A stretch of DNA of 64,000 bases, taken from assembly GCA_032433765.1 (NCBI GenBank), contig JAVIAB010000051.1:80988847-81052846 (forward strand), given 5' to 3'. The position numbers and the translations under genes are program-made. Below are positions 6,764-59,364 of this stretch, piece by piece. The notes beneath the pieces are model-generated. The model was not told the DNA's origin and did no database searches. It saw nothing but the letters and a program-made list of their open reading frames with translations. Source of the DNA: Megaustenia siamemsis (Eukaryota > Mollusca > Gastropoda > Stylommatophora > Ariophantidae). How positions within the stretch are numbered: position 1 is the stretch's first letter; every line of letters begins with the position of its first letter.

Positions 6764-8540
6764 GGTACAACCGGTAAGTATGGAACGAGAGGAACAATCG
6801 GTGAGCAAGGAATGAGAGGAACAACAGGTAAGCGGGGAACAATCGGTGAGCAAGGAATGAGAGGAACAAAAGGTAAGCGGGGAACAATCGGTGAGCAAGG
6901 AACGAGAGGAACAAACGGTGAGCAAGGAACGAGATGAACAAACGGTGAGCAAGGAATGAGAGGAACAAACGGTGAGCAAGGATCGAGAGGAACAAACGGT
7001 GAGCAAGGAACGAGAGGAACAATCGGTGAACAAGGAATGAGAGGAACAATCGGTGAGCAAGGAATGAGAGGAACAATCGGTGAGCAAGGAACGAGAGGAA
7101 CAAACGGTGAGCAAGGAACGAGAGGAACAATCGGTGAGCAAGGAATGAGAGGAACGATCGGTGAGCAAGGAATGAGAGGAACAACAGGTAAGCGGGGAAC
7201 AATCGGTGAGCAAGGAATGAGAGGAACAACAGGTAAGCGGGGAACAATCGGTGAGCAAGGAACGAGAGGAACAAACGGTGAGCAAGGAACGAGAGGAACA
7301 AACGATGAGCAAGGAACGAGAGGAACAAACGGTGAGCAAAGAACGAGAGGAACAACAGGTAAGCGGGGAACAATCGGTGAGCAAGGAATGAGAGGAACAA
7401 CAGGTAAGCGGGAAACAATCGGTGAGCAAGGAATGAGAGGAACAACAGGTAAGCGGGGAACAATCGGTGAGCAAGGAACGAGATGAACAAACGATGAGCA
7501 AGGAACGAGAGGAACAAACGGTGAGCAAGGAACGAGAGGAACACACGATGAGCAAGGAACGAGAGGAACAAAACGGTGAGCAAGGAACGAGAGGAACAAC
7601 AGGTAAGCGGGGAACAATCGGTGAGCAAGGAACGAGAGGAACAAATGGTGAGCAAGTAACCAGAGGAACAATCGGTAAGCAAGGAACGAGAGGAACAAAC
7701 GATGAGCAAGGAACGAGAGGAACAAACGATGAGCAAGGAACGAGAGGAAAAAACGGTGAGCAAGTAACCAGAGGAACAAACGGTGAGCAAGTAACCAGAG
7801 GAACAAACGATGAGCAAGGAACGAGAGGAATAAAACGGTGAGCAAAGAACGAGAGGAACAAATGGTGAGCAAGGAACAAGAGGAACAAATGGTGAGCAAG
7901 GAACGAGAGGAACAAACGATGAGCAAGTAACGAGAGGAACAAATGGTGAGCAAGGAACGAGAGGAACAAACGATGAGCAAAGAACGAGAGGAACAAATGG
8001 TGAGCAAGGAACGAGAGGAACAAACGATGAGCAAGTAACGAGAGGAACAAACGATGAGCAAGGAACGAGAGGAATAAAACGGTGAGCAAAGAACGAGAGG
8101 AACAAATGGTGAGCAAGGAACGAGAGGAACAAACGATGAGCAAGTAACGAGAGGAACAAACGATGAGCAAGTAACGAGAGGAACAAATGGTGAGCAAGGA
8201 ACGAGAGGAACAAATGGTGAGCAAGGAACGAGAGGAACAATTGGTGAGCAAGTAACGAGAGCAACAAACGATGAGCAAGGAACGAGAGGAACAAAACGGT
8301 GAGCAAAGAACGAGAGGAACAAACGATGAGCAAGGAACGAGAGGAACAAAACGGTGAGCAAAGAACGAGAGGAACAAATGGTGAGCAAGGAACGAGAGGA
8401 ACAAATGGTGAGCAAGGAACGAGAGGAACAAATGGTGAGCAAGGAACGAGAGGAACAATTGGTGAGCAAGTAACGAGAGCAACAAACAGTTAGCGAGGAA
8501 CGAGAGGAACAATCGGTGAGCAAGGAACGAGAGGAACAAC
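6764..8540 (+). repeat. 27/45-bp minisatellite with a collagen-like Gly-X-Y frame
   Basis: The core 27-bp unit is three 9-bp pieces: ggtgagcaa, ggaacgaga, ggaacaaac. On the + strand it reads GEQ-GTR-GTN, that is, Gly at every third residue. A 45-bp variant reads GTT-GKR-GTI-GEQ-GMR. The Gly-X-Y frame starts at 6764 and is broken by stops (first TGA at 6931) and 1-bp shifts. Stretches of over 100 codons remain, such as 6956-7486. The minus strand is also open (SFLAHRLFL type), as expected from composition. No proline appears, no collagen C-propeptide or signal peptide is seen, and I do not claim a gene. The array stops directly against a truncated LINE B. Confidence 0.9.
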
Positions 8541-27185: not shown

Positions 27186-27191
27186 AGTGCT
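27186..27191. repeat. Left 6-bp target duplication of the Polinton-type insertion
   Basis: AGTGCT, identical to 35682-35687. Confidence 0.85.
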
Positions 27192-27599
27192 AGTAGTGGT
27201 CTAGGGTGTTTTGAGCTAGGATTTTAACATTTTTGCTTGGTGAATTTTGGCTCCATGCAGCATTGGCATGTATCGCACAATCTCAGGTGACCTCGTTTAT
27301 CGTGGGTTCTTATCTCAAGTGCTTATCTGAAGTGGTCGGCCTCGCGGGTGGCCTTATCTCAAGTGGGCGTGCTGGCGACCAGTGGTTCTAAAACTTGTAT
27401 GTCAGCGGTTCTCAAAACCTGCGGGGGGGGGGGGGGGGGGTCGTGTCACATCATCAATGTGTGAGGATTAGGCGAAAAAGGCAAAGGGGTGTGCGTGTTA
27501 GTGCCTCGTCGATCATCATCGGGCCATCATCATCATGTGCCACCTCGGTCATCATCGGCGCTGGTCGTCGGCGATCGCTGGTCGTCGTCGCGGGTCGGA

Positions 27600-27760
27600 T
27601 CGGGCAACATCATCATGTGTAGTGATTAAATAGTGACGCTCTCTCTCATCATCATCATCATCATCATCAAGCCACACCCTCAACATCATCCCTTCATGTC
27701 TTATCATCATCATCATCACTAAGCCACATAAATTGACACATCATCATCATCACCGGGTTC
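27600..27760 (-). repeat. CATCATC microsatellite near the left terminus
   Basis: (ATC)n with a block 'gccacaccctcaacatcatc' and 'ccttcatgtcttatcatcat'. The same block is the unit of the spacer minisatellite at 31403-31950 and occurs, reversed, at 35110-35240. Confidence 0.85.
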
Positions 27761-27823
27761 GTGTGCCTGGTCGGTGTTTATGACAAAGGCTGCGGCCATC
27801 GTGTTCATCTTCTCTCTCGCGCA

Positions 27824-28463
27824 AACGGTGAAGTCTGTTAGAATCTGCCTTGTCTTGGACACCTCGAGCACTGAGTCAAATTCGGTAGCTCAAAATGGGA
27901 GCCGTCCGGTAGACTAGACGAGAGGTCAAAACCAAATAGACAATATCCGCCCTTGAACTCTCTATAATTAACGTTATTCCCTGGCGTCTTTACCAATCAG
28001 ACCCATGGCCAGATTTGTGCCGAAAAAAGCTCTTGCGTATTGATTTCGTTCAAAGTCCATAGTTAGAGGCTTTCCCGAGATGCATTTCCCGTCGACCGTC
28101 AGGTTCATATAAATCAGACCAAAGTGTTGAAAATTGAACGGGTTAGCGGAATAAACGCCATTAAACGCACTGGCCGTAATCAGACCTATCACTACACGGG
28201 TCGGTGTTTGAGACAAAAATAAATTGTCTTGACTGTGGGCGAACATCCCGCTAGCGATGGAAAATGTCTTGATGGTAACCCTCTTGATCGGGTACCGAGC
28301 ATTCCCGCTTAAGAGAGCCTTTTCGTGAGCCAGAGAAATCGCGGGGTTTAGCTTAGCTTACCTGACCACGAGCGCGGCGTAGGTGATAACACTCTTATAA
28401 CCCGCAGACCTATCGTGAGTCATGAGGCTGAACACATCCTTAGAAAGGCGTGTTAGAAAATAT
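27824..28463 (-). pseudogene. Capsid-like protein, 3' end (left arm)
   Basis: On the minus strand it starts at a block reading FLTRLSKDVFSLMTHDRSAG and passes through a TAA shared with the right arm. It then reads on through the segment containing SASAF-type NGVYSANPFNFQHFG and DFERNQYARAFFGTN. The part around the oligo-T run and the block after GKDARE are in a better state here than in the right arm. A roughly 95-bp deletion removes part of the last strand region, and the terminal stop is lost (TGC). From family knowledge this resembles the jelly-roll capsid-type proteins of Polinton/adintovirus elements, annotated in animal genomes as F54H12.2-like. The assignment rests on memory of the family. 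Confidence 0.65.
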
Positions 28464-28726
28464 TAGAAGTAAATATCGAGTCTAATGAAAAAGCAATAGA
28501 AAATGAACGCGAAACTTAGAAATATTAAAATGAAAACGAGCGTGAAACGTATGTAAAAATAACGAACGAACCTTATAAAATTTAGGCAACCGCATCGACA
28601 TGTACCTCGGCACGGGAGGGAGCGGATTATATGGAAAAGCATCTCGACTAACTGAAAGTTATTAAAATCGCGAAATAATAATAACTCGAAAGAAATAAAT
28701 AGCGGAAAACTATGTAAGAACCCCAC
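28463..28726 (-). other. Small hydrophobic open frame between capsid and polymerase (left arm)
   Basis: About 60-87 codons, ending in a strongly hydrophobic segment (FTLVFILIFLSFAFIFYCFF) that could span a membrane. The arm homologue is near 34080-34330. There is no recognisable family, and it may be chance. Confidence 0.25.
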
Positions 28727-29038
28727 CGGAAGTGCCCTGTTTATGTCTGGTGTGTGCTGACTTTGGAGCGCTTAGTGTACTTGAGCGATAGTGATAGGTT
28801 AGTAGATTATACAACATCAATGAAAAACATTAAATTTAAAACAGAAGACGAAGATATATTTTATTCTTTTATTATCTCAATAGGTGTATAACATACAGTG
28901 GATAAAATATATAGTACAGGGATAACCTTTATTTATAGCTATGTAGTTCGGTGTCTGCTTAGTTCTATGTCATAAATGAATCATAAGGGGCGAAACTGTT
29001 AGAGATTGCTGGGTAGTCTAAACTGGTAGTGTAAAGAG

Positions 29039-29640
29039 TTAAATATCTAAAGGCGTAGTCGAGACGTTATCATCAGCTACCTTTCTTTTTATATAGAAAT
29101 AGGAAAGAACATTTCTTGTTTGACTGTAGGAAAATATGGAATTATTTAAGACTTTGAAACCTACATTTTTCCCACCCTTAGCCTTTTGCGTAGCGAGAAC
29201 CTCTAAAAACATATCTTTAGCTAATTTGTTGTGTTGCTTACTTAACCCTTTACAACTGATTTTATCGTAATCCCCACTACAATGGTACGTCTTACTACAT
29301 AAACTAACAAGAGCCGTCCCTTCGGACTCTAGTTTAAAAAGCCCGGGCGTTCGTTTGGTGTATGCTTTAACACCCTTACAGTTTACACAGTCTGGCTAAT
29401 ATGGTCATCGCAAAACTCGACAGGAAACCAGTCTTTATATACGCTATTAAACTCATTCCGCAGCCCTGACTTAACTATAGCCTCCAACTTAGGTGCACTT
29501 AAAGCCAAATATAAACTATCAGTATCTGTTTCACATAACTGAAAGTTGGACCTATCTACAAACTTATCTAAGAACTCGAAATAAAAAAATATATCATACG
29601 AAGTTTTGCATATCTATACACGAAGAAACCGATTTGTAGG
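29039..29640 (-). pseudogene. Protein-primed DNA polymerase B, 3' end (left arm)
   Basis: This is the mirror of 33150-33753. It carries the same frameshift between the part ending FCDDHISQT and the part beginning CVNCKGVKAYTKRTPG. In addition it has a one-base difference in the A-run near 29583 that breaks the frame upstream of the catalytic motif. The stop follows VSTTPLDI. Confidence 0.75.
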
Positions 29641-29696
29641 GGTAAGTCCCATCCTACCGGGTGTGGGAAAACGGTATTTGTACAAAAATTTAAGGG

Positions 29697-30350
29697 TTGT
29701 GGTTCGTGGTTCGTGAGTTGATGATTCGCTAAGTCCATGGTTCGTGGGGTTGTGGTTCGTGGGGTCGTGGTTCGTGGTTCGTGAGTTGATGGTTCGTTAA
29801 GTCCATGGTTCGTGGGGTTGTGGTTCGTGGGGTCGTGGTTCGTGGGGTTGTGGTTCGTGGGGTCGTGGTTCGTGGTTCGTGAGTTGGTGGTTCGTTAAGT
29901 CCATGGTTCGTGGGGTTGTGGTTCGTGGGGTCGTGGTTCGTGGTTCGTGAGTTGATGATTCGTTAAGTCCATGGTTCGTGGGGTTGTGGTTCGTGGGGTC
30001 GTGGTTCGTGGGGTCGTGGTTCGTGGTTCGTGAGTTGGTGGTTCGTTAAGTCCGTGGTTCGTGGGGTTGTGGATCGTGGTTCGTGAGTTGATGATTCGTT
30101 AAGTCCATGGTTCGTGGGGTTGTGGTTCGTGGGGTCGTGGTTCGTGGTTCGTGAGTTGATGGTTCGTTAAGTCCGTGGTTCGTGGGGTTGTGGTTCGTGG
30201 TTCGTTAGTTGATGGTTCGTTAAGTCCATGGTTCGTGGGGTTGTGGTTCGCGGTTCGTGAGTTGAGGGTTCGGTAAGTCCGTGGTTCGTGGTTTGTTAAG
30301 TTCGTTGTTCGTGAGTTTGTGGTTTATTAAGTTTGTAGTTTGTTAAGTGC
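29697..30350 (-). repeat. 'gttcgtggggttgtg' minisatellite (left arm)
   Basis: Short alternating blocks (ggttcgtgagttgatg, gttcgttaagtcc, atggttcgtggggttgtg) in higher-order arrangement. The right-arm partner (32575-33097) is shorter and ordered differently, so the arms have evolved separately here. It replaces the upstream part of the polymerase gene. Confidence 0.9.
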
Positions 30351-30884
30351 GTGGTTCGAGAGGTCGTGGGCAAGGGCAGAAACCAAGGAGGCACCTCGAT
30401 GGACAGCTAGACAACCAAAGAATCGTTTTACAATCTCATTTGGTTAATTTGACGGAACCAGTTGTTATAATGCTTACATTTCAGTATTCGATTTTCAATT
30501 TCTCCCACTTATCGTTAATTTTCGCGGTTTTCCCCTTCTCTTTCTCTATAAATATATGTGTAAATAAAAAAGACATTATTTGTTTGACTAAAACCATGGT
30601 TTTTATATTGTGCTATATGTTTGTACATATGTTATCATCATCTACTAAACGTTTTAAACAGTTTAATAAAAGGTGACAAATTATAATCATCGTCTTCTCT
30701 TATAGAAAACTATTACTAACGAAGAACATATCTTTAATAAGACATCACCAATGATGACTCACCGCAACAACAACAAAAACTACGAGAACTGAAAAAAAAT
30801 GAATATAACTTTAAATTGTAAAACAACAACTCAATAATGTTGGGAAAAGTTGGAGGTTCGGATGCTAAAGAATTTAGTGAACGT

Positions 30885-31037
30885 TAAAAACTTGGGCACC
30901 GTTAGTATATTTACGTTAATGTTGAAACTTGATCAAATTATCATGTCTTATCAGACGGGTCACGGCGGCACCGTTAGTATATTTACGTTAATGTTGAACC
31001 TTGATCAAATTATCATGTCTTATCAGACGGGTCATTG
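30885..31037 (+). repeat. Two tandem copies of a ~71-bp unit in the spacer
   Basis: ggcaccgttagtatatttac ... tcttatcagacgggtca occurs twice in succession with one or two differences. Confidence 0.9.
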
Positions 31038-31194
31038 TTAAGTGACATATCTATTCGACATCTACTGTGTCCACTTGTCTTATCCCTGGTTGCTAGTCGC
31101 TATATCTCCTGAGAATGATAATTACCCCTCACCTAGGATCACTATAATGTCTTTAACAAAAGTGTTAACTTCAAGTTATTAGAAGGGAAGAGTG

Positions 31195-31405
31195 CCCGGT
31201 GTTTCTTGTTAAGGCGTTTGTTATTAATAATGTATAAATTGACAGGCTGGAGAAAATACAGAATAAAGAGATGCGCATTAACTTGGGGTGTACGAGGGAC
31301 ACGCCCTGTATAGCAATGAGGTATCTTCTTGACAGTGACAAGGGCATTTTTCTGGTTAGAGTCACAACTGCCTTAACGCCATCTTTAGACAACGGAACTA
31401 CCCCC
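31195..31405 (+). mobile_element. LINE family G fragment inside the Polinton spacer
   Basis: It reads LEKIQNKEMRINLGCTRDTP and CIAMRYLLD, matching 38370-38460. It then jumps to a short block (VRVTTALTPSLDN) before the CATCATC array. It is a partial, internally deleted copy. Confidence 0.75.
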
Positions 31406-31950
31406 TCTGCCTTCATGTCCTATCATCATCACGTGCCACCCTCAACAACATCAGCAACCCTTCATGTTCTATCATCATCATGTGCCACCCTCAACGCCAT
31501 CATCAACCCTCCATGTCCTATCATCAACATGTACCACCCTCAACAACAACATCATCCCTTCATGTCCTATCATCATCACGTGCCACCCTCAACAACATCA
31601 GCAACCCTTCATGGTCTATCATCATCACGTGCCACCCTCAACAACATCAGCAACCCTTCATAGCCTATCATCATCATCAGGTGCCACCCTCAACACCATC
31701 ACCATCCCTTCATGTCCTATCATCATCATCATCCCTTCATGTCCTATCATCATCAAGCCACACAAAGTATCAAACCGATTATTAGTGACACATCATCATG
31801 CGCCACCCTCAACACCATCATCAGCCCTTCAGGTCCTATCATCAAGCCACACAAAGTATCAAACCGATTATTAGTGACACATCATCATGCGCCACCCTCA
31901 ACACCATCATCAGCCCTTCAGGTCCTATCATCAAGCCACACAAAGTATCA
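31403..31950 (+). repeat. CATCATC-type minisatellite in the spacer
   Basis: Units of roughly 45-60 bp ('catcatgtgccaccctcaac', 'accatcatcaacccttcatg', 'tcctatcatcatc') are followed by three ~89-bp units with 'agccacacaaagtatcaaac'. They share the terminal block of both arms. Confidence 0.9.
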
Positions 31951-31958
31951 ACCAACGA

Positions 31959-31961
<3 letters not shown>

Positions 31962-32003
<42 letters not shown>

Positions 32004-32004
32004 A
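31962..32004 (+). repeat. (CT)n microsatellite
   Basis: About 20 dinucleotide units just before the right arm. Confidence 0.95.
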
Positions 32005-32574
32005 CATTCATGGTAAACCAAAACAAAATAGGCTCATACTCAAAAAGTCGACCTAAAATCCCAAAAGCTACTCACATAGATTGAGTTGTTGTTTTACAAT
32101 TTAAAGTTATATTCGTTTTTGTCAGTTCTCGTAGTTTTTGTTGTTGTTGCGGTGAGTCATCATTGGTGATGTCTTATTAAAGATATGTTCTTCGTTAGTA
32201 ATAGTTTTCTATAAGAGAAGACGATGATTATAATTTGTCACCTTTTATTAAACTGTTTAAAACGTTTAGTAGATGATGATAACATATGTACAAACATATA
32301 GCAAAATATAAAAACCATGGTTTTAGTCAAACAAATAATGACTTTTTTATTTACACATATATTTATAGAGAAAGAGAGGGGGAAAACCGCGAAAATTAAC
32401 GATAAGTGGGAGAAATTGAAAATCGAATACTGAAATATAAGCATTATAAGAACTGGTTCCGTCAAATTAACCAAATGAGATTGTAAAACGCTTCTTCGGT
32501 TGTCTAGCTGTCCATCGAGGTGCCTCCTTGGTCTCTGCCCTTGCCTCTTAGGTTTCTGCCCTTGCCCACGACCT

Positions 32575-33097
32575 CTCGAACCACGCACTTAACAAACTAC
32601 AAACTTAATAAACCACAAACTCACGAACAACGAACTTAACAAACCACGAACCACGGACTTACCGAACCCTCAACTCACGAACCGCGAACCACAACCCTAC
32701 AAACCATGGACTTAACGAACCATCAACTAACGAACCACGAACCACAACCCCACGAACCACGGACTTAAAGAACCATCAACTCACGAACCACGAACCACGA
32801 CCCCACGAACCACAACCCCACTAACCATGGACTTAACGAATCATCAACTCACGAACCACGAACCACAACCAAACGAACCACGGACTTAACGAACCACCAA
32901 CTCACGAACCACGAACCACGACCCCACGAACCACAACCCCACGAACCACGAACCACGACCCCACGAACCACAACCCCACGAACCATGGACTTAACGAACC
33001 ATCAACTCACGAACCACGAACCACGACCCCACGAACCACAACCCCACGAACCATGGACTTAACGAATCATCAACTCACGAACCACGAACCACAACCC
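32575..33097 (+). repeat. 'cacgaaccacaacccc' minisatellite (right arm)
   Basis: Complement of the left-arm array, with fewer units. Confidence 0.9.
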
Positions 33098-33149
33098 TTA
33101 AATTTTTGTACAAATACCGTTTTCCCACACCCGGTAGGATGGGACTTAC

Positions 33150-33753
33150 CCCTACAAATCGGTTTCTTCGTGTATCGATATGCAAAACTTCGTATGATAT
33201 ATTTTTTTTATTTCGAGTTCTTAGATAAGTTTGTAGATAGGTCCAACTTTCAGTTATGTGAAACAGATACTGATAGTTTATATTTGGCTTTAAGTGCACC
33301 TAAGTTGGAGGCTATAGTTAAGTCAGGGCTGCGGAATGAGTTTAATAGCGTATATAAAGACTGGTTTCCTGTCGAGTTTTGCGATGACCATATTAGCCAG
33401 ACTGTGTAAACTGTAAGGGTGTTAAAGCATACACCAAACGAACGCCCGGGCTTTTTAAACTAGAGTCCGAAGGGACGGCTCTTGTTAGTTTATGTAGTAA
33501 GACGTACCATTGTAGTGGGGATTACGATAAAATCAGTTGTAAAGGGTTAAGTAAGCAACACAACAAATTAGCTAAAGATATGTTTTTAGAGGTTCTCGCT
33601 ACGCAAAAGGCTAAGGGTGGGAAAAATGTAGGTTTCAAAGTCTTAAATAATTCCATATTTTCCTACAGTCAAACAAGAAATGTTCTTTCCTATTTCTATA
33701 TAAAAAGAAAGGTAGCTGATGATAACGTCTCGACTACGCCTTTAGATATTTAA
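33150..33753 (+). pseudogene. Protein-primed DNA polymerase B, 3' end (right arm)
   Basis: This encodes the C-terminal palm/thumb of a type B, protein-primed polymerase. QIGFFVYRYAKLRM is followed by the catalytic motif C, TDTDSLY (33266-33277 encode DTDS), then LRNEFNSVYKDWFP. A TAA at 33407 ends the first frame. The sequence continues one frame over from about 33403 (KRTPGLFKLESEG, CSKTYH, KRKVADDNVSTTPLDI-stop at 33751). So a single small frame change near 33390-33405 breaks the gene. The exonuclease and priming domains are missing and are replaced by a minisatellite. Family identity is from known Polinton/adintovirus-like polymerases. Confidence 0.8.
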
Positions 33754-34331
33754 CTCTTTACACTACCAGTTTAGACTACCCAGCAATCTCTAACAGTTTC
33801 GCCCCTTATGATTCATTTATGACATAGAACTAAGCAGACACCGAACTACATAGCTATAAATAAAGGTTATCCCTGTACTATATATTTTATCCACTGTATG
33901 TTATACACCTATTGAGATAATAAAAGAATAATATATATCTTCGTCTTCTGTTTTAAATTTAATGTTTTTCATTGATGTTGTATAATCTACTAACCTATCA
34001 CTATCGCTCAAGTACACCAAGCGCTCCAAAGTCAGCACACACCAGACATAAACAGGGCACTTCCGGTGGGGTTCTTACATAGTTTTCCGCTCATTTATTT
34101 CTTTCGAGTTATTATTATTTCGCGATTTTAATAACTTTCAGTTAGTCGAGATGCTTTTCCATATAATCCGCTCCCTCCCGTGCCGAGGTACATGTCGATG
34201 CGGTTGCCTAAATTGTATAAGGTTCATTCGTTATTTTTACATAAGTTTCACGCTCGTTTTCATTTTAATATTTCTAAGTTTCGCGTTCATTTTCTATTGC
34301 TTTTTTCATTAGACTCGATATTTACTTCTAA

Positions 34332-35054
34332 TATTTTCTAACACGCCTTTGTAAGGATGTGTTCAGCCTCATGACTCACGATAGGTCTGCGGGTTATAAG
34401 AGTGTTATCACCTACGCCGCGCTCGTGGTCAGGTAAGCTAAGCTAAACCCCGCGATTTCTCTGGCTCACGAAAAGGCTCTCTTAAGCGGGAATGCTCGGT
34501 ACCCGATCAAGAGGGTTACCATCAAGACATTTTCCATCGCTAGCGGGATGTTCGCCCACAGTCAAGACAATTTATTTTTTTTTGTCTCAAACACCGACCC
34601 GTGTAGTGATAGGTCTGATTACGGCCAGTGCGTTTAATGGCGTTTATTCCGCTAACCCGTTCAATTTTCAACACTTTGGTCTGATTTATATGAACCTGAC
34701 GGTCGACGGGAAATGCATCTCGAGAAAGCCTCTAACTATGGACTTTGAACGAAAGCAATACGCGAGAGCTTTTTTCGGCACAAATCTGGCCGTGGGTCTG
34801 ATTGGTAAAGACGCCAGGGAATAACGTTGATTATAGAGAGTTCAAAGACGGATATTGTCTATTTGTTTTTTGACCTCTCGTCTAGTCTACTGGACGGCTC
34901 CCATTTTGAGCTAGCCACAAGCGGACCCTTGTCGATAGAACTCAAGTTTGCCGCTCCAACAACTACTCCCCTACAAGTCATCGTCTACGCCGAGTTGGAC
35001 TCAGTGCTCGAGGTGTCCAAGACAAGGCAGATTCTAACAGACTTCACCGTTTGA
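34332..35054 (+). pseudogene. Capsid-like protein, 3' end (right arm)
   Basis: The fragment starts near FLTRLCKDVFSLMTHDRSAG and meets TAA at 34434-34436 (also in the left arm). It is shifted by an extra 4 T in a run near 34570 and shifted again after GKDARE (34822) and in a T-run near 34868. The last part (SHFELATSGPLSIELKF, VIVYAELDSVLEVSK) reaches a TGA at 35052 after DFTV. The internal segment from NGVYSANPFNFQHFG is shared with the left arm. It resembles Polinton/adintovirus capsid-type proteins (F54H12.2-like in animal annotations); this is recognition from memory. Confidence 0.68.
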
Positions 35055-35109
35055 GCGAGAGAGAAGATGAACACGATGGCCGCAGCCTTTGTCATAAACA
35101 CCGACCCGG

Positions 35110-35202
35110 CACACGAACCCGGTGATGATGATGATGTGTCAATTTATGTGGCTTGGTGATGATGATGATAAGACATGAAGGGATGATGTTGAGGGTGTGG
35201 CT

Positions 35203-35235
<33 letters not shown>

Positions 35236-35240
35236 GAGAG
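35110..35240 (+). repeat. TGATGATG microsatellite near the right terminus
   Basis: Complement of the left-terminus repeat, including 'atgaagggatgatgttgagg'. Confidence 0.85.
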
Positions 35241-35681
35241 AGGGAGCGTCACTATTTAATCACTACACATGATGATGTTGCCCGATCCGACCTGCGACGA
35301 CGACCAGCGACCGCCGACGACCAGCGCCGATGATGACCGAGGTGGCACATGATGTTGATGGCCCGATGATGATCGACGTGGCACTAACACGCACACCCCT
35401 TTGCCTTTTTTGCCTAATCCTCACACATTGATGATGTGACACGACCATCGCAAGTTTTGAGAACCGCTGACATACAAGTTTTAGAACCACTGATCGCCAG
35501 CACGCCCACTTGAGATAAGACCACCCGCAAGGCCGACCACTTCAGATAAGCACTTGAGATAAGAACCCATGATAAACGAGGTCACCTGAGATTGTGCGAT
35601 ACATGCCAATGCTGCATGGAGCCAAAATGCACCAAGCAAAAAATGTTCAAATCCTAGCTCAAAACACCCTAGACCACTACT

Positions 35682-35687
35682 AGTGCT
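35682..35687. repeat. Right 6-bp target duplication of the Polinton-type insertion
   Basis: AGTGCT, identical to 27186-27191. Confidence 0.85.
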
Positions 35688-36489: not shown

Positions 36490-38215
36490 CAATTTCTCTG
36501 GCAGTACCTGTGCTATGAGATAAAATATCCTTCACTACAATTTCTGGGAAAGTAAAATGGCACGGGCGTAATACCGACCACATTATCCAAAAAATCATGC
36601 ACTGAAGGTCTGTAAAATATATTGTCACTAACACCATATATCATGTACGCCATTTGGTGTGACAGGATTCTTTACATTTTTTAAAAATCTGTGCTATGAG
36701 ATAAATCATCCTTTCCTACAAATTCTCTGTCAGTATGAGTGCCGTGAGGTAAACCATCCTTCCCTACAATTTCTCCTGCAGTATCTGTGACATGAAGTAA
36801 ACCATCCTTCCCTACAATTTCTCCTGCAGTATCTGTGCCATGAGGTAAACCATCCTTCCCTACAATTTCTCCTGCAGTATCTGTGCCATGAGATAAACCA
36901 TCCTTCCCTACAATTTCTCTGGCAGTATCTGTGCCATGAGGTAAACCATCCTTCCCTACAATTTCTCTGGCAGTATCTGTGCCATGAGATAAACCATCCT
37001 TCCCTACAATTTCTCTGGCATTATCTGTGCCATGAGATAAACCATCCTTCCCTACAATTTCTTCTGCAGTATCTGTGCCATGAGATAAACCATCCTTCCC
37101 TACAATTTCTCCTGCAGTATCTGTGCTGTGAGATTAACCATCCTTCCCTACAATTTCTCTGCCAGTATCTGTGCTATGAGATAAACCATCCTTCCATACA
37201 ATTTCTCTGGCAGTATCTGTGCTGTGAGATAAACCATCCTTCCCTACAATTTCTCTGGCAGTATCTGTGCTATGAGATAAACCATCCTTCCATACAATTT
37301 CTCTGGCAGTATGTGTGCTGTGAGATAAACCATCCTTCCCTACAATTTCTCTGGCAGTATCTGTGCTGTAAGATAAACCATCCTTCCCTACAATTTCTCT
37401 GGCAGTATCTGTCCTTTGAGATAAACCATCCTTCCCTACAATTTCTCTGGCAGTATCTGTGCTATGAGATAAACCATCCTTCCCTACAATTTCTCTGGCA
37501 GTATCTGTGCCATGAGATAAACCATCCTTCCCTACAATTTCTCTGGCAGTATCTGTGCCATGAGATAAACCATCCTTCCCTACAATTTCTCTGGCAGTAT
37601 CTGTGCTATGAGATAAACCATCCTTCAATACAATTTCTATGGCAGTATCTGTGCTATGAGATAAACCATCCTTCCCTGCAATTTCTCTGGCAGTATCTGT
37701 GCTATGAGATAAACCATCCTTCCATACAATTTCTCTGGCAGTATCTGTACCATGAGATAAACCATCCTTCCCTACAATTTCTCTGGCAGTATCTGTGCTA
37801 TGAGATACACCATCCTTCCCTACAATTTCTCTGGCAGTATCTGTGCTATGCGATAAACCATCATTCCCTACAATTTCTCTGGCAGTATCTGTGCTATGAG
37901 ATAAACCATCCTTCCAAACAATTTCTCTGGCAGTATCTGTGCTATAAGATAAATCATCCTTCACTACAAATTCTCTGGCAGTATCTGTGCTATGCGATAA
38001 ACCATCCTTCCCTTCAATTTCTCTGGCAGTATCTGTGCTATGAGATAAACCATCCTTCCATACAATTTCTCTGGCAGTATCTGTGCAATGAGATAAACCA
38101 TCCTTCCCTACAATTTTTCTGGCAGTATCTGTGCTATGAGATAAATCATCCTTCACTACAAATTCTCTGGCAGTATCTGTGCTGTGAGATAAACCAACCT
38201 TCACTACAATTTTCA
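36490..38215. repeat. 48-bp minisatellite (about 33 units)
   Basis: The unit is tttctctggcagtatctgtg + ctatgagataaaccatcctt + ccctacaa. Forty-eight is 16 codons, so both strands are open for long distances (minus: DGLSHSTDTAREIVGK for about 385 codons from 38291 to 37134). No signal peptide, domain or splice site defines a gene. The array is interrupted by a SINE1 fragment and ends next to LINE G. Confidence 0.94.
36541..36690 (+). mobile_element. SINE1 3' half inserted in the 48-bp array
   Basis: ctgggaaagtaaaatggcac through 'tcactaacaccatatatcat' and 'gtgacaggattctttac' matches SINE1 from mid-body to tail. Array units lie on both sides. Confidence 0.85.
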
Positions 38216-58016: not shown

Positions 58017-59066
58017 CTCTGCTCTTGACATTGTCCTCAACTCTTGACATCGCTCTCAACTCTCGACATCGCTCTCAACTCTTGACATCGCTCTCAACTC
58101 TTGATATCGCTCTCAACTCTTGACATCGCTCTCAACTCTTGACATCGCTCTCAACTCTTGATATCGCTCTCAACTCTTGACATCGCTCTCAACTCTTGAC
58201 ATCGCTCTCAACTCTTGACATCGCTCTCAACTCTTGACATCGCTCTCAACTCGTGACATCGCTCTCAATTCTTGACATCGCTCTCAACTCTTGACATCGC
58301 TCTCAACTCGTGACATTGCTCTCAACTCGTGACATTGCTCTCAACTCGTGACATTGCTCTCAACTCTTGACATCGCTTTCAACTCGTGACATTCCTCTCA
58401 AATCGTGACATCCCTCTCAAATCGTGACATAGCTCTCAAATCGTGACATCGCTCTCAACTCTTGACATCGCTCTCAAATCGTTACATTGCTTTCAAATCG
58501 TGACATCGCTCTCAACTCGTGACATCGCTCTCAACTCTTGACAACTCGTGACATCGCTCTCAACTCGTGACATCGCTCTCAACTCGTGACATCGCTCTCA
58601 ACTCGTGACATCGCTCTCAACTCGTGACATCGCTCTCAACTCTTGACATCGCTCTCAACTCGTGACATTGCTCTCAACTCGTGACATTGCTCTCAACTCT
58701 TGATATTGCTCTCAACTCTTGACATCGCTCTCAACTCGTGACATTGCTCTCAACTCGTGACATTGCTCTCAACTCGTGACATTACTCTCAACTGTTGACA
58801 TTGCTGTCAACTTTTGACATTTTACTCTCAACTCGTGACATCGCTCTCAACTCGTGACATTGCTCTCAACTCTTGACATTACTCTCAACTGTTGACATTA
58901 CTGTCAACTCTTGATATTGCTCTCAACTTTTGACATTTTACTCTCAACTCTTGACATTTTGCTCTCAACTCTTGGCATTACACTGAACTCTTGACATTGC
59001 TCTCAATTCTTGATATTCTCTCAACTCTTGACATTATTCTCAACTCTTGACATTGCTCTCAACTCT
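58017..59066. repeat. 19-bp minisatellite (about 53 units)
   Basis: tcgctctcaactcttgaca with two main variants (cttgaca / cgtgaca) that occur in runs. It decays at the right end. It lies about 300 bp upstream of the Ras-GRF coding exon, in 5' flank or 5' intron. Confidence 0.95.
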
Positions 59067-59364
59067 TGATTCACTTTTAACACCGGACATTACCATTAGT
59101 TTCCTAATATCTTTCTCAGCTACTACTAATTCAACTTAATTTCTTCTAATATCCTCATATAATTAGAAACTATTAATCTGACATGCAATAATGAATATTA
59201 ATCTTAACCATTTACCCTAATGTTTAATCATTCTTAACTACAAAATCATATCAACCAGTGACATCACTCTTAATCAAAGACATCATTCTCAGTTCCTAGT
59301 ATCATTCTCAACCGCTGACTGCACTCGCAACCATCTGATATCTCTTGCTGTTCCCGACCTCCAG
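59067..59364. other. Spacer between minisatellite and exon
   Basis: Contains degenerate repeat-like phrases ('agtgacatcactctt') and a pyrimidine-rich acceptor (ttgctgttcccgacctccag) ending at 59364. Confidence 0.45.

What the first reader, a model, noticed from the sequence alone, without database searches (positions are those of the whole stretch)
27192..35681. A Polinton-type element integrated as a giant palindrome
Two 3.6-kb inverted arms carry the same outward-reading polymerase and capsid 3' ends around a short spacer. The outer ends are AG...CT with an intact 6-bp AGTGCT duplication. The duplication shows one insertion event bounded by the outer ends, not two independent insertions. 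Normal Polintons have different left and right gene contents; this one has one end twice. That is the structure expected of a snap-back (defective-genome-like) replication product of a protein-primed linear DNA that was then integrated. Either copying happened before integration, or a normal insertion was later converted by inverted recombination.
Basis: partly seen in the sequence, partly recalled or inferred. Interest (0 to 1): 0.93.

Follow-up and report, generated by a model that had tools for sequence, protein, structure and literature searches.

The report
A multiplying family of palindromic Polintons
The mirror-image mobile element in this window is real, but it is no one-off copying accident: it is a decayed member of a large family in this genome whose virus-like elements are inherited and inserted as palindromes, some carrying two back-to-back DNA polymerase genes.

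Summary
Window 27192-35681 is a palindrome: two arms of about 3.6 kb, 93-96% identical, around a 1.24-kb spacer, with AGTAGT...ACTACT ends and a perfect 6-bp duplication, AGTGCT. Its flanks do not mirror each other, so it is no assembly fold-back. The one-off snap-back reading fails. All 19 other places fetched with an outer-arm probe hold family sequence in both orientations. In 20 of 22 independent places with both ends located, the 6-bp flanks are identical; they give 19 different target sites. A 332-bp centre core recurs in 15 of 21 places. So the palindrome formed earlier and moves as a unit. Larger relatives exist. One is an 11.8-kb near-perfect palindrome (arms 99.93% identical, about 96-bp spacer) with an intact 1,394-aa B-family polymerase frame in each arm. 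The exact end 16-mer of that type occurs 1,286 + 1,283 times in this 2.59-Gb genome. On average, arms agree far better within a copy than between copies, so copies are repeatedly made symmetric. Integrase and capsid genes were found on a separate, non-palindromic element (one read). The window copy is a broken chimera of both kinds, probably moved in trans.

The parts
27186..27191 (.). target-site duplication AGTGCT, left copy
27192..30835 (+). left arm of the palindrome, read from the outer end inward
27974..28357 (-). capsid-type 3' fragment, 127-aa open frame; 14 database proteins at 32-65% identity over 62-98% of the query, one of them from Brachionus calyciflorus (44%)
29039..29395 (-). 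PolB C-terminal fragment, 118-aa frame, cut off from the upstream polymerase frame; the same break is in the right arm
29652..29692 (+). 41-bp piece matching the start of a gene in the capsid/integrase element (reads ...PTGCGKT... in the C41 relative, ATPase-like by eye), joined to the polymerase remnant; left-arm position inferred from the arm alignment
29695..30324 (.). minisatellite (GGTTCGT-based) in the left arm
30836..32079 (.). asymmetric spacer
30967..31298 (+). centre core found in 15 of 21 places examined, window included
32080..35681 (-). right arm of the palindrome, read from the outer end inward
32603..33097 (.). minisatellite in the right arm
33140..34066 (+). stretch shared with the polymerase palindromes (polymerase 3' end and downstream DNA), 85-93% identical
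33397..33753 (+). PolB C-terminal fragment, right arm, 118 aa
34342..35071 (+). stretch shared with the capsid/integrase element (capsid 3' part, 93%)
   Evidence: converted from arm positions 611-1340
34486..35054 (+). capsid-type 3' fragment, right arm, in two frames
35682..35687 (.). target-site duplication AGTGCT, right copy

Best explanation
The window holds a decayed, non-autonomous member of a large family of Polinton-type elements whose transposing unit is itself a palindrome. Shown: the palindromes share arms and, in most places read, a centre core; they sit at different sites, nearly always with their own 6-bp duplications; they carry (AGT)2 ends; arms within a copy are on average more alike than arms of different copies, with no memory of left and right; relatives are near-perfect palindromes, one of them read with two intact outward PolB frames. 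Inferred: an integrase of the rve-plus-chromodomain kind, encoded by separate capsid-bearing elements with similar (AGT)n ends, inserts them in trans; PolB copies them from both identical ends; a displaced strand folds into one long hairpin and is copied or repaired against itself, which makes each new copy symmetric again. The founding palindrome probably arose by fold-back close to one end of an ancestral linear element, since a single end-like motif survives at the centre of some polymerase palindromes. The window type arose by deletion and recombination that joined a capsid-element end to a polymerase-element end.
For: Family and orientation. Own duplications: 20 of 22 independent places with both ends located, 19 different sequences. 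Double-PolB palindrome. 150 polymerase matches listed: 49 outward pairs, 0 convergent neighbours; 9 of 150 lie in frames of 1,297-1,484 aa and 44 of 150 in frames of the same length as the window's broken one, 118 aa. Exact end 16-mer 1,286 + 1,283 times, backwards control 0 + 1; 41 facing pairs among the first 100 listed ends. Concerted arms: 3 and 5 mismatches within two large copies, 193 between them; 16 smaller copies 0.50% against 1.55% after shuffling partners, 0 of 10,000 shuffles reach it; same-side and opposite-side distances between copies both 1.61%. Integrase on the capsid element: rve 1.6e-12 and chromo 6.4e-7. End-like motif at the centre.
Against: No extrachromosomal form, terminal protein or replication intermediate was looked for or seen. 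Gene conversion after insertion would also make arms alike. Homogenisation is not complete: in c123a, L021, L022 and L024 the nearest relative of an arm lies in another copy. Transposition in trans is inferred; the palindromes were not scanned with an integrase profile, and the capsid element that I read ends in AGTAGTAGGTG, not AGTAGTATACAAGGG. Two independent places have unequal flanks: C46, only scattered arm pieces, and L025, whose mirror runs about 400 bp past both ends to the limit of the stretch, so that L025 could be a chromosomal inverted duplication or an assembly fold-back. The DNA next to the central hairpin of the C41 palindrome is not symmetric, which plain fold-back at that hairpin does not predict; 9 of 12 polymerase pairs checked lack the exact central end motif. 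The genome search scores only the best 40 or 150 candidates.
Confidence: 0.72

Rival explanations
1. One reading: this copy is a single snap-back (defective-genome-like) product of a normal Polinton, integrated once.
For: Mirror arms, intact outer duplication, one end twice.
Against: Many other palindromes of the same family at other sites, most with their own duplications; shared centre core in 15 of 21 places; frames of the window's broken length (118 aa) recur in 44 of 150 listed polymerase matches.
Confidence: 0.05
2. Chromosomal gene conversion: the elements have very long terminal inverted repeats extended by conversion (TIR1-F1-F1-TIR2, as proposed for Galileo), and conversion within each inserted copy keeps the arms alike. 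No fold-back replication is needed.
For: Uneven divergence along the window's arms with a 0.17% stretch between 1-3% stretches; some arms are closer to another copy than to their own partner; the mechanism is proposed for Galileo (PMC3573991, passages).
Against: The C41 palindrome is 99.93% symmetric over a 5,875-column block right up to its ends; arms of most copies are closest to their own partner, so symmetry is gained at or after nearly every insertion.
Confidence: 0.3
3. Composite element: two single-polymerase elements once inserted in opposite orientation close together, and the pair then moved as a unit by its outer ends.
For: The centre of the C41 palindrome holds one end-like sequence (CCCTAACATACTACT) beside about 80 bp of other DNA; the motif lies 42-283 bp from the midpoint in five elements.
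Against: Only one inner end is seen, not two; no single-polymerase element with that inner end was found, though none was searched for beyond the listed places; the motif was never a facing pair among the first 100 listed of 285 places.
Confidence: 0.2
4. Assembly artefact (a fold-back read joined into the contig).
For: Palindromes are a known assembly error; one other place, L025, is mirrored beyond its ends and has unequal flanks.
Against: In the window the mirror stops at the element ends; flanks are not mirrored and carry direct duplications; arms differ by 58 substitutions and 15 gap runs.
Confidence: 0.02

Closest known systems
Polinton/Maverick elements (vertebrate Mavericks, PMC8097293)
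   Same: (AGT)2//(ACT)2 ends, 6-bp duplications, PolB with motifs A, B and C, capsid-type protein; rve integrase on the sister element.
   Different: Inverted arms of 3.6-5.9 kb instead of terminal repeats of 46-1,447 bp; one gene content twice; two PolB frames in a larger relative; no integrase frame noticed in the palindromes; 8.5-11.8 kb for the two read in full here instead of 12.7-24.6 kb (ranges).
Galileo and other foldback DNA transposons (PMC3573991)
   Same: Long inverted repeats extended by recruiting inner sequence; tandem repeats inside the arms; many copies.
   Different: P-superfamily transposase and about 1-kb repeats there; here (AGT)2 ends, 6-bp duplications and PolB.
Symmetric or defective adenovirus genomes with one end twice (recalled, not read; the 12 papers listed do not hold the phrase 'symmetric recombinant')
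   Same: Protein-primed linear genome with a duplicated end and a foreign centre.
   Different: Those are laboratory products in virus stocks; here palindromes are inherited in a genome in high copy.
Bidnaviridae (PMC4061559)
   Same: Polinton-derived PolB and terminal repeats on a two-segment genome.
   Different: Capsid and PolB are on one segment there; no palindromic segment is described in the passages that I saw.

Membership tests
Polinton/Maverick | 6-bp target-site duplication | tested here: met
   AGTGCT on both sides; 20 of 22 independent family places with both ends located
Polinton/Maverick | (AGT)2//(ACT)2 or similar ends | tested here: met
   AGTAGTGG...CCACTACT; motif in PMC8097293
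[quoted passage not shown]
   Broken C-terminal piece in the window; a relative with 1,394-aa frames, motifs YDANALYL, LLGNSAYGKT and DTDS, homologues carrying PF03175. The 1,394-aa protein itself gave no PF03175 match at E <= 1, and protein priming was not testable.
Polinton/Maverick | capsid genes | tested here: inconclusive
   A 3' fragment with homologues; the capsid name is recalled from related annotations, and a structure job did not finish
Polinton/Maverick | rve-type integrase in the element | tested here: inconclusive
   None noticed among the window element's frames of 80 aa or more; five fragments scanned gave none; the frames were not scanned as a set. Present on the separate capsid element
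Polinton/Maverick | terminal repeats of about 0.05-1.4 kb with different left and right gene content | tested here: not met
   Arms 3.6 kb here, 4.5 and 5.9 kb in relatives, same genes on both sides
Foldback elements (Galileo type) | P-superfamily THAP transposase | not tested
   No such gene was looked for; the 6-bp duplication and ends point elsewhere

The most novel reading that the evidence does not exclude
A natural two-part Polinton system. The DNA polymerase lives on self-complementary palindromic elements with two PolB genes, which rebuild their symmetry in every cycle by copying one arm from the other. Integrase and capsid live on separate non-palindromic elements that insert both kinds, and window-type palindromes are parasites of the pair.
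Probability: 0.3. Interest if true: 0.93.

Novelty: new variant of a known kind. Interest (0 to 1): 0.85.

Why it matters
It shows in one genome that palindromic, one-end-twice forms of a Polinton-type element can be a heritable and very successful genome form and not only dead-end by-products. It gives a direct test of whether such elements copy themselves through a hairpin stage, because a great many insertions record the symmetry of each copy. If polymerase and integrase/capsid prove to be separated genome-wide, it would be a two-part mobile element linking transposons, segmented viruses and defective genomes.

Tried and rejected
Viral contigs gave no relatives by tblastn for the polymerase piece, the capsid piece or a 594-aa polymerase piece; alignments A1 and A2 were too variable for that search. 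Pfam found nothing above its cut-off in the five window fragments scanned, NCBIfam nothing above its cut-offs in nine frames of the capsid element. PDB found nothing for the first polymerase piece. The idea that the window's middle is recent and its outer repeats old was dropped because the innermost part is nearly as diverged as the outer part. The idea that the 13.97-kb facing pair on C46 is a full-length parent was dropped: only scattered arm pieces, unequal flanks. Four of six further polymerase palindromes had their ends outside the 221-bp stretches fetched. A pattern search for the capsid-element end did not complete, so the length range of that class is unknown. A search for PF03175 in the genome did not complete. 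The spacer's 31238-31390 frame resembles LINE proteins by memory only; Pfam gave nothing.
Full report
What is there. The window element runs from 27192 to 35681. Its arms (27192 to about 30835; about 32080 to 35681) mirror each other at 93-96% over about 3.6 kb. A full alignment gives 3,435 identical and 58 different positions with 15 gap runs. The ends read AGTAGTGGTCTAGGG and its reverse complement, and AGTGCT stands directly repeated outside both. Because the flanks are not mirrored and the arms differ by many substitutions, an assembly fold-back is very unlikely here.

Gene pieces. From the outside inward each arm holds a capsid-type 3' fragment, a PolB C-terminal fragment and a minisatellite. 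The polymerase fragment is 38-68% identical to 9 database proteins, one of them named DNA-directed DNA polymerase, from Holothuria leucospilota. The capsid fragment matches 14 proteins at 32-65%. The polymerase frame is broken at the same place in both arms. The capsid frame is open over 127 aa in the left arm and split in the right. Comparison with relatives shows a mosaic: arm positions 611-1340 match the capsid/integrase element at 93%, positions 1616-2542 match the polymerase palindromes at 85-93%, and 41 bp at 2543-2583 match the start of a gene of the capsid/integrase element.

It is a family. The genome holding the window has 2.59 Gb in 155 contigs. A 1,309-bp outer-arm probe gave 182 matches from 40 scored of 2,904 candidates. 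I fetched 20 stretches at 19 places; all 19 hold arm sequence in both orientations, some truncated (L010, L012, L027, L028). With one more copy on C41 and the window, 15 of 21 places carry a 332-bp centre core, window 30967-31298; L010, L012, L014, L015, L027 and L028 lack it. A 16-mer of the window's exact end occurs 13 + 10 times; 20 of the 23 form facing pairs (counted by eye).

Own duplications. Among the first-fetched places, the window and the C41 copy, 18 have both ends located and 17 have identical 6-bp flanks; L025 has not. Four larger palindromes also match (two, read by eye; two), and the C46 pair does not. L015 is a segmental copy of L014. That makes 20 of 22 independent places, with 19 different duplications (GTCGTT occurs twice). 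Not counted for want of an end: L011, L013, L026 and four of six places. One search gives p of about 1e-71 for 20 of 21 by chance; it was computed without C46, which does not change the conclusion. In L025 the mirror runs about 400 bp past both ends to the limit of the stretch, so that place may be a chromosomal inverted duplication or an assembly fault.

Larger relatives. The polymerase fragment as a protein query listed 150 matches, scored out of 6,172 candidates. In that list 49 outward-facing pairs and no convergent pair occur; 52 matches have no listed partner, which the cut-off alone may explain. Nine of 150 lie in frames of 1,297-1,484 aa, and 44 of 150 in frames of 118 aa like the window's, which suggests that the break was inherited through amplification. 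One pair was read in full: C41:37475632-37487466, about 11.8 kb. Its arms form a 5,875-column block with 3 mismatches and one gap, which takes in five flank bases on each side; the spacer is about 96 bp; each arm has a 1,394-aa frame; no other ATG frame of 120 aa or more lies wholly inside the palindrome. The protein has PolB motifs A, B and C, and a C2H2 zinc finger near its N terminus. Residues 620-1394 match 2,135 proteins; the best ones bearing an organism's name are land-snail proteins (Bradybaena similaris) at 58-63%, and many of the 120 listed carry PF03175, though this protein itself gave no PF03175 match. A second palindrome on C91 has 4.55-kb arms at 99.78% with broken frames. The end 16-mer of these two occurs 1,286 + 1,283 times genome-wide against 0 + 1 for the pattern read backwards; the first 100 listed ends form 41 facing pairs of 3.2-14.8 kb, median 9,975. 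I did not check how many of those pairs are palindromes.

Symmetry is renewed. Over 1.8 kb of arm, 17 smaller copies differ between their own arms by 0.33% at the median, while arms of different copies differ by 1.61% on average, the same for same-side and opposite-side arms. Without the segmental copy the mean within a copy is 0.50%; shuffling partners gives 1.55%, and 0 of 10,000 shuffles reach the observed value. It is not perfect: L021 (1.50%) and L022 (1.39%), and also c123a and L024, have arms whose nearest relative lies in another copy. The two large palindromes differ from each other at 193 sites of 4,463 but within themselves at 3 and 5. So the arms of a copy are made alike during or after most cycles. 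This fits copying through a hairpin and also gene conversion. The uneven divergence in the window copy looks like some conversion after insertion.

The centre. The C41 palindrome has at its centre one end-like sequence (CCCTAACATACTACT) and a small perfect hairpin, whose neighbours are not symmetric. A palindrome on C24, of which only ends and centre were fetched, has a different 103-bp spacer, also with a small hairpin. The end-like 16-mer AGTAGTATGTTAGGGT occurs 158 + 127 times; among the first 100 listed places no facing pair was seen. On C1, 3 of 7 lie within 45-283 bp of the midpoint of a facing pair of outer ends; of 12 polymerase pairs checked, 3 have it (one of them a C1 case), 42-111 bp from the midpoint, and 9 do not. 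This suggests, but does not prove, that the first palindrome formed near one end of a linear ancestor.

Where the integrase and capsid are. A 126-aa capsid query listed 150 matches, many in frames of 457-493 aa; 10 outward pairs and 1 convergent pair were seen. One such element was read (C41:51728734 to about 51737650, 8.9 kb): not a palindrome, terminal repeats of about 760 bp at 87%, ends AGTAGTAGGTG, CATGCA on both sides if one end has an extra AGT (by eye), a 434-aa capsid-type frame, a PC4-domain frame and an integrase frame with rve (1.6e-12) and chromo (6.4e-7) domains. Its largest frame is the 434-aa one, and blastn with the C41 polymerase palindrome found only 36-bp and 27-bp matches, so no polymerase gene was seen. 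Integrase matches are single: 0 outward and 1 convergent pair in 150. Nine of 150 integrase matches have a listed capsid match within 16 kb, 0 of 150 have a listed polymerase match, and 3 of 150 capsid matches have one; two of these three are window-type copies that I read, the third was not read. The lists are cut at 150, so this is suggestive only, and one capsid element is a small sample.

Comparison with print. Vertebrate Mavericks have the same (AGT)2 ends and 6-bp duplications, terminal repeats of 46-1,447 bp and sizes of 12.7-24.6 kb (PMC8097293, section 7 and passages). The Galileo paper proposes TIR extension by recombination and mentions expansion of Polinton inverted repeats (PMC3573991, passages); I did not see the work it cites for that. 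Bidnaviruses carry a Polinton-type PolB on a two-segment genome (PMC4061559, passages). Ten searches of the held library listed no paper that I could recognise, by title and start of abstract, as describing palindromic Polintons with two polymerases; most subscription journals are not held. Adenovirus symmetric recombinants are recalled, not read.

Verdict. The palindrome is a family trait. How the symmetry is renewed, and whether polymerase and integrase are truly separated, are the open questions.

Noticed in passing
L009-L030 against window 27192-27890: Two end types share about 97-98% identical middle arms but only about 77-82% identical pieces in the outer 600 bp and different bases after AGTAGT, as if ends were exchanged or evolve much faster.
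   Followed up: partly
L014 and L015 (C155:24986750 and C155:24937400): The same palindrome and duplication occur twice about 49 kb apart, which looks like a segmental duplication.
   Followed up: partly
L029/L030 (C41:38311000-38329300): A palindrome of the family with two copies of a mariner-like transposase frame and an inner duplication (mariner by eye, not searched).
   Followed up: no
L037:2019-2759 (-): The capsid/integrase element encodes a PC4-domain protein (PF02229, 1.1e-5), possibly a single-strand DNA binding protein.
   Followed up: no
window 6767-8539, 36687-38212, 58022-59069: Long minisatellite arrays (27-, 48- and 19-bp units) are frequent in the window.
   Followed up: no
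L025 (C124:67988400-67998343): The mirror symmetry extends about 400 bp beyond both element ends, to the limit of the stretch, and the flanks AGACAG/CATGTC differ; L026, about 190 kb away, shares the right flank CATGTC. It may be a chromosomal inverted duplication, a rearranged site or an assembly fault.
   Followed up: no
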